DNA from: Mycobacterium sp. 852002-40037_SCH5390672
GTDB lineage: Bacteria > Actinomycetota > Actinomycetes > Mycobacteriales > Mycobacteriaceae
NCBI RefSeq assembly: GCF_001665875.1
Contig: NZ_LZTA01000006.1
Location: 62,001-126,000 of the forward strand
DNA: 64,000 bases
Reading direction: 5' to 3'
Below, piece after piece: positions 29,301 through 30,838 of the stretch. Made by a program: the position numbers and the translations under genes. The first letter of the stretch is position 1. Every line of letters starts with the position of its first letter. Below the pieces are notes generated by a model. That model had not been told where the DNA came from. It worked only from the letters and a program-made list of their open reading frames with translations, and ran no database searches.

Positions 29301-29476
29301 CGTCGGGGGCCTTCGGGCAAGAACACGAATACCTCTTCGGTGAATCTCGTGGATGGGCTGGCGATGCTTACGACCAGAGGTCGGTTGTCGGCGCCGTTTA
29401 GTTCCCGGCAGTTTCGTTCTGGCGATAAATGTCGCGAGTCTTTGCGCACAGCCGGGGCATGCGCAACGATGCAGGG

Positions 29477-30838
29477 ATGCGGTGTGAGATTGCGCGTGAA
29501 GCGCTGTCGGCTCGATTGGACGGCGAGCGTCCCCAGGTGCTCGCGCAGCAGGTCGATGCCCACCTTGAATCCTGCCGCAGCTGCCGCTCCTGGCTGATCG
29601 GGGCGGCGGTGCAGACCCGCCGGCTGGCCTCGGTGACGCCCGGCGAGGGACCCGATCTGGTCGAGAAAATCATGGCCAGCATCGGCGAGCAGCCCACCGG
29701 CCGCCAGGCCCGGATGCGCTGGTTGCGCTCGCACTACCGCCGGTGGGGTCTGATCGCTGTCGGTCTTTTCCAGGTGGCGATTGCCGCCGCCCAAATCAGC
29801 GGAGTCGATTTCGGCATGGTGTCCGCTCATATGCACGGCGCGATGTCCGGCGAGCACCTGATGCACGAGTCGACGGCATGGTTGCTGGCGTTGGGTCTGG
29901 CGATGATTGCCGCCGGTGTCTGGCCCGCCTCGGCCTCGGGGGTGGCGGCGATCACCGGTGTCTATTCCGTTGCGCTGCTGGGTTATGTGATCGTCGACGC
30001 CTTCGACGGCCAAGTCACCGCCACCCGCATCGCCAGCCACATGCCGCTGCTGCTGGGCTTGGCATTTGCGTTGCTGGTGGCGCGGGAGCGGGTGGGATCG
30101 CACCGACGGCGCGGCTCCGACGCTTCCGACGACGCCGACTTCCCCGGCTGGGCGACAGACTCACCGAGTGGTCGGCGTCGCGGGCATCTGCGGCCCATCA
30201 ATCATGCTGTTCTCGACCCCACCGCACGTTCTACGACGAGCCGTAGTAGGATCGAAAAACCCGCACAACAAAGGTGGTTGGGCATGATCGCGCCGAGCGA
30301 TGACGAAGCCGTAACCGAGCTCGCGTTGTCAGCCGCACGCGGAAACCCGCGGGCGCTCGAGGCGTTCATCAAAGCCACCCAGCAAGACGTGTGGCGCTTC
30401 GTCGCCTATCTATCGGATGCGGGCAGCGCCGACGATCTGACCCAGGAGACTTTCCTGCGTGCCATCGGCGCCGTCGAGCGATTCTCCGGGCGCTCGAGCG
30501 CGCGGACCTGGCTGCTTTCCATCGCGCGCCGCGTGGTGGCCGACCACATCCGCCACCTGCAATCACGGCCGCGCGCTGCTCTGGGCGCCGACCCCGAGCA
30601 CGTGGTGCGCGGGGACCGTCACGCCCGCGGATTCGAGGACCTGGTCGAGGTGACGACGATGATCGCCAACCTCAACACCGAACAGCGCGAAGCGCTTCTG
30701 CTCACCCAGCTGCTCGGTCTGCCCTACGCCGACGCCGCCGCGGTATGCGGCTGCCCGGTTGGCACCATTCGCTCCCGCGTTGCACGCGCCCGCGACGCGC
30801 TGCTGGCCGATGGTGAGCGCGGCCACCTAACCGGCTAG
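29477..30838 (+). CDS. ZAS-type anti-sigma-like membrane protein, in frame with SigC
   Basis: One uninterrupted frame runs from the ATG at 29429 to the sigC stop. I favour the ATG at 29477 (MRCEIAREALSARLDGE), which resembles zf-HC2 anti-sigma starts. The zinc motif is H-x3-C-x2-C (HLESCRSC, His45/Cys49/Cys52 counted from 29429). Four hydrophobic segments follow, at about residues 106-127, 150-168, 170-191 and 203-217. Between the first two is a His/Met-rich loop (HMHGAMSGEHLMHES, positions 29830-29874) that would face outside. Residue 286 is the SigC start Met. Whether a fusion protein is made, or SigC is translated separately, is unresolved. No stop codon separates the two parts. Confidence 0.7.
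   Translation: MRCEIAREALSARLDGERPQVLAQQVDAHLESCRSCRSWLIGAAVQTRRLASVTPGEGPDLVEKIMASIGEQPTGRQARMRWLRSHYRRWGLIAVGLFQVAIAAAQISGVDFGMVSAHMHGAMSGEHLMHESTAWLLALGLAMIAAGVWPASASGVAAITGVYSVALLGYVIVDAFDGQVTATRIASHMPLLLGLAFALLVARERVGSHRRRGSDASDDADFPGWATDSPSGRRRGHLRPINHAVLDPTARSTTSRSRIEKPAQQRWLGMIAPSDDEAVTELALSAARGNPRALEAFIKATQQDVWRFVAYLSDAGSADDLTQETFLRAIGAVERFSGRSSARTWLLSIARRVVADHIRHLQSRPRAALGADPEHVVRGDRHARGFEDLVEVTTMIANLNTEQREALLLTQLLGLPYADAAAVCGCPVGTIRSRVARARDALLADGERGHLTG
30284..30838 (+). CDS. sigC: ECF sigma factor SigC
   Basis: 184-aa extracytoplasmic-function sigma factor from the internal ATG at 30284. This start is supported by an RBS (AAGGTGG, 30271-30277) 6 nt upstream and by similarity to the M. 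tuberculosis SigC N-terminus (ASDDEAV). Region 2 spans residues ~20-90 (KATQQDVWRFVAYLSDAG, SADDLTQETFLRAIGA). Region 4 spans ~115-175 (LLLTQLLGLPYADAAAVC, GTIRSRVARARDALL). A TAGGAT hexamer at 30247-30252 could serve as a separate -10 box. The stop overlaps cobK's 3' end by 12 bp. SigC occurs in several slow growers and is reported absent from M. smegmatis. Confidence 0.95.
   Translation: MIAPSDDEAVTELALSAARGNPRALEAFIKATQQDVWRFVAYLSDAGSADDLTQETFLRAIGAVERFSGRSSARTWLLSIARRVVADHIRHLQSRPRAALGADPEHVVRGDRHARGFEDLVEVTTMIANLNTEQREALLLTQLLGLPYADAAAVCGCPVGTIRSRVARARDALLADGERGHLTG

What the first reader, a model, noticed from the sequence alone, without database searches (positions are those of the whole stretch)
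29429..30838. Zinc anti-sigma membrane domain in frame with SigC
Seen: one stop-free frame joins an H-x3-C-x2-C zinc motif, four TM segments and SigC. An RBS (AAGGTGG) and ATG at 30284 also allow separate SigC synthesis. Known: ZAS anti-sigma factors hold ECF sigma factors; I recall no established anti-sigma factor for SigC. Inferred: the domain could be a covalent or overlapping cognate anti-sigma. Even the topology works, since both ends of the four-TM unit face the cytoplasm.
Basis: partly seen in the sequence, partly recalled or inferred. Interest (0 to 1): 0.85.

Follow-up and report, generated by a model that had tools for sequence, protein, structure and literature searches.

The report
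Copper-linked membrane anti-sigma fused to SigC
One unbroken mycobacterial gene joins a zinc-finger membrane domain to the transcription factor SigC, and that domain is likely SigC's own anti-sigma factor, predicted to hold it at the membrane until copper runs short.

Summary
ORF 29429-30838 joins a zinc finger (zf-HC2), a four-helix membrane domain (DUF2275) and SigC in one frame, with an SD and ATG at 30284 inside. The fusion is not new in print: reviews mention it for the M. avium complex and for ECF36, function open.

What I add is comparative. (1) SigC and this ZAS family occur together in 253 of 396 Mycobacterium genomes, one without the other in 8. (2) SigC sits in one long frame at 101 of 121 ortholog places; on the tree, species with adjacent separate genes branch between the two fused groups. 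(3) An internal palindrome and SD are kept in 89 of 90 distinct linkers, so free SigC is probably made too. (4) Free ZAS copies neighbour metal/copper genes; all 8 examined genomes without an intact ZAS beside sigC have a free one and the TauD gene of the copper-scavenging (nrp) operon. (5) A GGAACT-N16-CGAC motif found in copper clusters faces the divergent PPE gene in 83 of 83 loci where I detected one.

Best reading: the front half is SigC's cognate membrane anti-sigma in a copper-linked circuit. No binding, copper response or protein product was measured.

The parts
29429..30838 (+). Single open frame: ZAS zinc finger, DUF2275 membrane domain and SigC, 469 aa
29477..29638 (+). ZAS (zf-HC2) domain, residues 17-70, candidate Zn ligands C19, H45, C49, C52; dN/dS 0.12
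29699..30112 (+). Four predicted membrane helices (residues about 91-123, 141-164, 166-192, 198-228); residues 100-222 dN/dS 0.20
29828..29869 (+). His/Met-rich stretch (H134, H136, H143, H146, E147), predicted to lie outside the membrane; candidate metal site together with D190 and H204
   Evidence: for conservation; outer position inferred from four helices with both ends inside
30170..30202 (+). GRRRGHLRPIN; its counterpart ends most free and adjacent ZAS proteins shortly before their stop codon; here it continues into the former intergenic DNA
30231..30249 (.). Palindrome CTACGACGAGCCGTAGTAG inside the ORF; BlaI-type operator by inference
30270..30277 (+). SD-like AAAGGTGG for the internal SigC start
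30284..30838 (+). SigC coding part (184 aa) with its own ATG; dN/dS 0.10
29380..29405 (-). SigC-type promoter motif GGAACT-N16-CGAC facing the divergent PPE gene (SigC recognition inferred)
27657..29300 (-). Divergent PPE gene (547 aa), predicted SigC target

Best explanation
One stop-free gene joins a ZAS zinc finger and a four-helix membrane domain (DUF2275) to SigC, and the front half is likely SigC's own anti-sigma factor, predicted to keep the attached SigC inactive at the membrane. Shown by sequence: a ribosome that translates the ZAS half without frameshifting must run on into SigC; the linker matches the C-terminal tail of separate ZAS proteins followed by what is intergenic DNA in other species, and it still carries a palindrome and a ribosome binding site. 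Inferred: the gene makes two products, a tethered full-length protein and free SigC from the internal start. Inferred: the conserved His/Glu/Asp residues at the outer face report on copper; when copper is short the ZAS domain lets go of SigC by a shape change or a cut in the roughly 60-residue linker, and SigC switches on its regulon, here including the divergent PPE gene through a GGAACT-N16-CGAC promoter. Where the ZAS half beside sigC was lost (M. leprae, M. lepromatosis and others), a free ZAS gene elsewhere in the genome likely does the same job.
For: Co-occurrence: both families 253, SigC only 2, ZAS only 6, neither 135 of 396 genomes, phi 0.956. Other genera of the family: 31 genomes matched; of the 14 whose surroundings I fetched, a SigC-like sigma lies within the 10-11 kb stretch in 9, a copper ATPase in 7, one of copper ATPase/CtaG/PepSY/DUF5134 in 10. 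Loss and replacement: all 8 genomes without an intact ZAS beside sigC have a free ZAS and the TauD gene of the chalkophore operon, against TauD in 8 of 60 others (G319 unresolved); the free ZAS is intact in M. leprae. Frame: in 90 distinct fused linkers of 15 lengths, 87 and 88 have a stop in the two other frames; frame 0 is open by definition of the class. Constraint over 30 main-group sequences: dN/dS 0.12 ZAS, 0.20 TM, 0.10 SigC, 0.49 linker. Promoter motif: 8 of 26 copper-cluster upstream regions against at most 3 in 60 shuffled sets; facing the PPE side in 80 of 94, facing the fused gene in 1 of 94; present in 83 of 83 loci with a detected divergent PPE. In M. tuberculosis SigC controls ctpB and ppe1-nrp and protects from copper starvation (PMC7924339, passages; PMC9600254, passages).
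Against: No binding, localisation, product or copper response measured. AlphaFold2 gives pTM 0.39 and linker pLDDT under 50, so no confident placing of ZAS against SigC. In M. sp. 1245805.9, which has a second, free SigC, the sigma part of the fused-only copy has 17 gapped positions against the window's SigC while its ZAS stays 80% identical, so there the free form may be the working one. If every ZAS is occupied by its own SigC, free SigC from the internal start could escape control. Co-occurrence is not corrected for relatedness. Free ZAS copies of M. leprae and G237 match zf-HC2 but not the DUF2275 model; their homology rests on 46-49% identity to another free copy. H146 of the fused form is Asn in most free copies. 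In G188 and G341 the free ZAS lies beside a metal ATPase but not near the chalkophore TauD gene. Two genomes have SigC without a ZAS hit (G126, 63% complete; G251).
Confidence: 0.62

Rival explanations
1. The fusion is a by-product of stop loss: only short SigC from the internal start matters, and the ZAS half is a vestige or acts without its SigC tail.
For: Internal palindrome and SD kept in 89 of 90 linkers; in one strain the fused sigma part is degrading while a free SigC exists; the ZAS half beside sigC was lost in several lineages.
Against: ZAS and TM under purifying selection (dN/dS 0.12 and 0.20); two fused groups on the tree; of the main-group loci with both halves readable, only L053 and L145 are out of frame or stopped (L125, cut and partly inverted at a contig end, not judged).
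Confidence: 0.2
2. ZAS-DUF2275 is SigC's cognate anti-sigma but senses something other than copper, for example redox state through the zinc site, or iron/heme.
For: ZAS domains of the SigH and SigE anti-sigma factors answer oxidation (PMC8999054 passages); some loci pair ZAS with PepSY genes and no copper ATPase in the stretch seen (L064; L235, L239).
Against: Copper/metal ATPase and CtaG neighbours; SigC regulon and mutant phenotype are copper starvation; conserved His residues predicted outside.
Confidence: 0.25
3. SigC needs no anti-sigma: its own two domains mask each other, as a review proposes for M. tuberculosis, and ZAS serves another sigma factor.
For: Proposed in print for M. tuberculosis SigC (PMC8999054).
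Against: ZAS is found in 253 of 255 SigC-bearing genomes and near a SigC-like sigma in 9 of 14 loci of other genera; the window genome has a single ZAS of this family, the fused one.
Confidence: 0.12

Closest known systems
ECF36 sigma factors fused to DUF2275 anti-sigma (review PMC8999054; example KLO31890.1, Mycolicibacter heraklionensis)
   Same: N-terminal extension with three to four TM helices and DUF2275, sigma domain of the SigC group; very likely the same family
   Different: The passages I saw hold two sentences and a table row that files it under proteolysis; no distribution, internal start, promoter or copper link there
sigC-Rv0093c fusion of the M. avium complex (review PMC7563442, citing Manganelli 2014, not seen)
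   Same: This very gene type; 'function is yet to be uncovered'
   Different: Adds nothing on mechanism in the passages seen; I extend it to two groups and to free ZAS copies in copper clusters
IutY (Pseudomonas putida, ECF243*)
   Same: Listed in PMC8999054 among sigma factors with regulatory extensions activated by proteolysis
   Different: Not sequence-compared here; that it joins sigma and anti-sigma in one chain is recalled; Prc/RseP cutting is from the review's figure legend
CnrYXH metal-sensing anti-sigma system
   Same: Membrane anti-sigma answering a metal (recalled)
   Different: Separate proteins; cobalt/nickel (recalled)
CorE (Myxococcus xanthus)
   Same: Copper-answering ECF sigma factor with an attached control domain (PMC8999054 passages)
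   Different: C-terminal Cys-rich extension; no membrane part (recalled)

Membership tests
SigC (ECF36 sigma factor) | NCBIfam SigC equivalog above its cut-off | tested here: met
   NF007231, 364.5 bits against cut-off 219, residues 286-469
SigC (ECF36 sigma factor) | Close sequence match to solved SigC | tested here: met
   2o7g E 1.8e-52 and 2o8x E 1.1e-31
ZAS class of anti-sigma factors | zf-HC2 domain with H-x3-C-x2-C and an upstream Cys | tested here: met
ZAS class of anti-sigma factors | Binds and inhibits a cognate sigma factor | not testable with these tools
   Only co-occurrence and adjacency tested
Fused DUF2275-ECF36 proteins | DUF2275 and TM helices N-terminal to the sigma domain in one frame | tested here: met
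Sigma factors released by regulated proteolysis | Cut by a site-2 or other protease | not testable with these tools
   Only a low-confidence linker is seen
Copper sensors | Binds copper | not testable with these tools
   Conserved His/Glu/Asp residues only
BlaI-type operator | Palindrome bound by BlaI | tested here: inconclusive
   Palindrome conserved; sigC belongs to the BlaI regulon in M. tuberculosis (PMC8265638 passages); the BlaI binding motif itself was not seen or compared

The most novel reading that the evidence does not exclude
A one-piece copper-starvation switch: a membrane sensor carrying its own sigma factor on a flexible tether, with a second promoter and start hidden inside the tether that make the free sigma, arisen by stop loss in two mycobacterial groups; in lineages that dropped the sensor half, SigC is held by a free ZAS (the Rv0093c type), which would be the missing anti-SigC of the tuberculosis and leprosy bacilli.
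Probability: 0.35. Interest if true: 0.85.

Novelty: new variant of a known kind. Interest (0 to 1): 0.64.

Why it matters
SigC serves the copper-starvation response of M. tuberculosis, and PMC7924339 states that no anti-SigC factor is known and asks how copper shortage is sensed. This analysis names a candidate anti-sigma family, explains why it is easy to miss (fused in some species, a free gene far from sigC in others), and names a promoter motif and a PPE target, so the question can be tested in harmless laboratory hosts.

Tried and rejected
Chance open frame: rejected, since the two other frames of the linker carry stops in 87 and 88 of 90 cases. Sequencing error or artefact: rejected, same frame in many genomes. 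ZAS as partner of any sigma: unlikely given co-occurrence. A SigC consensus that I recalled (SSSAAT-N16-20-CGTSSS, typed as a slightly widened pattern) gave two stray matches in 26 copper-cluster upstream regions and was dropped for the de novo pair. Chalkophore operon in the window's genome: no TauD match, so SigC's targets there must differ in part from those of M. tuberculosis. A sigC-side PPE as strict substitute for the chalkophore operon: not held; several genomes have neither sign. AlphaFold2 gave no usable ZAS-SigC interface; Foldseek's 50 listed hits are mostly sigma factors, SigC itself first. The second structure job was not used. Phylogenetic correction of the co-occurrence was not done.

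Full report
OBSERVATION. The frame 29429-30838 on the + strand is open over 469 codons and ends at the SigC stop. It holds zf-HC2 (19-53), DUF2275 (72-251) and a SigC equivalog (286-469). The SD-like AAAGGTGG (30270-30277) and ATG 30284 are there. Among the nearest named records are M. colombiense strains, 92-94% identical, so the window is from the M. avium complex or close to it.

ALREADY IN PRINT. PMC7563442 (passages) says that among M. [quoted passage not shown] it also cites almost identical predicted SigC promoter elements in front of both (their letters not seen). My searches (DUF2275; SigC with anti-sigma and copper; fused ECF; Rv0093c; ECF36; BlaI with sigC; SigC with chalkophore and nrp; sigC with fused; SigC with copper starvation) showed nothing further on the mechanism of the fusion in the listings or passages that I saw. 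So the fusion is known; the rest below I did not find in the held library.

DISTRIBUTION. In 396 sampled Mycobacterium genomes, SigC-group sigma (E up to 1e-40) occurs in 255 and this ZAS family (query: a free copy; E up to 1e-12) in 259; both in 253, SigC only in 2, ZAS only in 6, neither in 135, phi 0.956. This is not corrected for relatedness. The Pfam DUF2275 model alone passes its cut-off in 149 of 396. Among the 121 best SigC places (75% identity or more), 101 lie in an open frame of 440 aa or more and 20 do not; for G383 the ZAS matches are in pieces on both strands, so its fusion is unsure. In the 176 loci classified, duplicates included, 148 are fused, 10 have a stop between the parts, 7 are out of frame (one, L125, at a contig end with a piece inverted) and 11 lack a hit to one part.

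HISTORY. A SigC DNA tree of 84 rows (quick method) holds 12 fused rows around named Mycolicibacter species (11 in one branch, L139 unresolved beside it) and 47 fused rows in the main slow-grower group; species with adjacent separate genes branch between the two. Two fusions, or one fusion and later splits, both fit. In the separate species ZAS mostly ends in NRSAA-stop or a like tail, about 40-80 nt before SigC; the fused linker looks like that tail plus the old gap. M. lepraemurium (L145) is out of frame and G143 has a broken ZAS.

LINKER. In 90 distinct fused stretches the length takes 15 values. Frame 0 is open in all, which is the definition of the class; the other frames hold stops in 87 and 88. 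Of the main-group loci with both halves readable, only L053 and L145 are not fused. A palindrome CTACGAC...GTCGTA (or close) and an SD with an in-frame start are kept in 89 of 90, and the palindrome also in front of all 7 sigC genes tested that lack ZAS, but not of 5 fast-grower or paralogous sigma genes tested. Synonymous change is lowest there (pS 0.31 against 0.43-0.55 in the five other stretches; 30 sequences), so the DNA itself seems constrained. sigC is in the BlaI regulon of M. tuberculosis (PMC8265638, passages); that the palindrome is the BlaI operator is my inference. The same palindrome lies at or just before the start of CtaG genes in 4 of 6 copper-cluster loci scanned. The window has one such palindrome.

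FREE COPIES AND COPPER. In fast growers and other genera the free ZAS often neighbours copper P-type ATPases, Caa3_CtaG, DUF5134, PepSY proteins and a SigC-like sigma (Pfam run on genes of L201, L070, L064 and L207 only; elsewhere by likeness). Of 31 matching genomes outside the genus I fetched 14: sigma in 9, copper ATPase in 7, any of the four partner types in 10. In G237, G357, G161, G015, M. leprae (G115, contig length equal to NC_002677.1) and M. lepromatosis (G075, length equal to NZ_CP083405.1), it sits between a metal ATPase (a short piece in G161) and the PPE-TauD-AMP-ligase-NRPS operon, the chalkophore cluster. In G143 it is about 10 kb from the TauD gene; in G188 and G341 it lies beside a metal ATPase but not near TauD (other contig; more than 300 kb). 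In M. leprae this ZAS is intact (257 aa) while a stretch that by eye is a SigC-like sigma remnant lies nearby; SigC is the only member of its group found there at E up to 1e-40. The free copies of G237 and M. leprae match zf-HC2 but not the DUF2275 model; they are 49% and 46% identical to the free copy of G341. Of 69 genomes tested for the operon's TauD gene, 16 have it: all 8 without an intact ZAS beside sigC, and 8 of 60 others; G319 cannot be judged, contig ends. Those 8 are fewer independent events. The window's genome has only the fused ZAS and no TauD match. That the free gene is Rv0093c in M. tuberculosis rests on recall of gene order and on PMC7563442; I identified no M. tuberculosis genome in what I could search.

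PROMOTER. Among 26 upstream regions of copper-cluster genes the most shared bipartite word is GGAACT-N16-CGACT, in 8; 60 shuffled sets reached 3 at most. Related species are among the 26. Searched in 94 regions in front of fused genes, the motif faces the divergent side in 80 and the fused gene in 1. Over 103 regions (93 fused, 10 separate or out of frame): divergent PPE (found by its N-terminal pattern) with motif 83, neither 14, motif only 6, PPE only 0. In the window it lies at 29405-29380 on the minus strand, 80 nt from the PPE start at 29300; the 64-kb window has three other matches. So the divergent PPE gene is a predicted SigC target; its N-terminal half is 44% identical to a chalkophore-cluster PPE.

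STRUCTURE. AlphaFold2 on 57 aligned sequences: mean pLDDT 72.6, pTM 0.39; ZAS helices and the four membrane helices mostly good, linker 231-289 (window numbering) under 50. Arg-rich stretches lie before TM1 and after TM4, which fits both ends inside. In 125 homologs C19, H45, C49, C52, E147, W151 and D190 are invariant, H143 and H204 nearly so; H134, H136 and H146 are kept in 98-100% of the fused form. The outer-face placing is inferred.

MECHANISM. Shown: one frame; constraint on ZAS, TM and SigC; conserved internal start and palindrome; company with copper genes; the motif at PPE. Inferred: ZAS binds SigC; the full-length protein is made and tethered; copper is the signal; release by shape change or cutting; free SigC from the internal start; SigC reads the motif. 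A puzzle is how free SigC is kept in check if each ZAS holds its own SigC; exchange between molecules, or low full-length output, could answer it.

VERDICT. Real and conserved; the fusion itself is already in print but unexplained. The comparative evidence makes ZAS-DUF2275 the leading candidate for the missing anti-SigC factor and ties it to copper.

Noticed in passing
L129 6001-7281 and L147 2910-3527 (Mycobacterium sp. 1245805.9): One strain carries a fused ZAS-SigC without palindrome or internal SD and, on another contig, a free SigC with both; the sigma part of the fused copy has an internal deletion.
   Followed up: partly
L217 6710-10479 (M. leprae): Intact free ZAS gene beside a metal ATPase and the chalkophore operon, with what looks like a remnant of a SigC-like sigma gene nearby.
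   Followed up: partly
L201 14363, L215 10288, L205 4451, L206 9262: The palindrome of the sigC linker also lies at or just before the start of Caa3_CtaG genes, hinting at one repressor for sigC and ctaG.
   Followed up: partly
L044 and L051 (G150): One genome with two fused ZAS-SigC genes about 60 kb apart, the second with a divergent end.
   Followed up: no
L145 (M. lepraemurium): ZAS and SigC parts out of frame with each other, in a member of the fused group.
   Followed up: no
L192 8075-8461: Gene that looks like a BlaI/CopY-type repressor (by eye, not tested) inside a copper cluster.
   Followed up: no
G383 contigs 26 and 61; L125: ZAS matches in pieces on opposite strands, perhaps misassemblies.
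   Followed up: no
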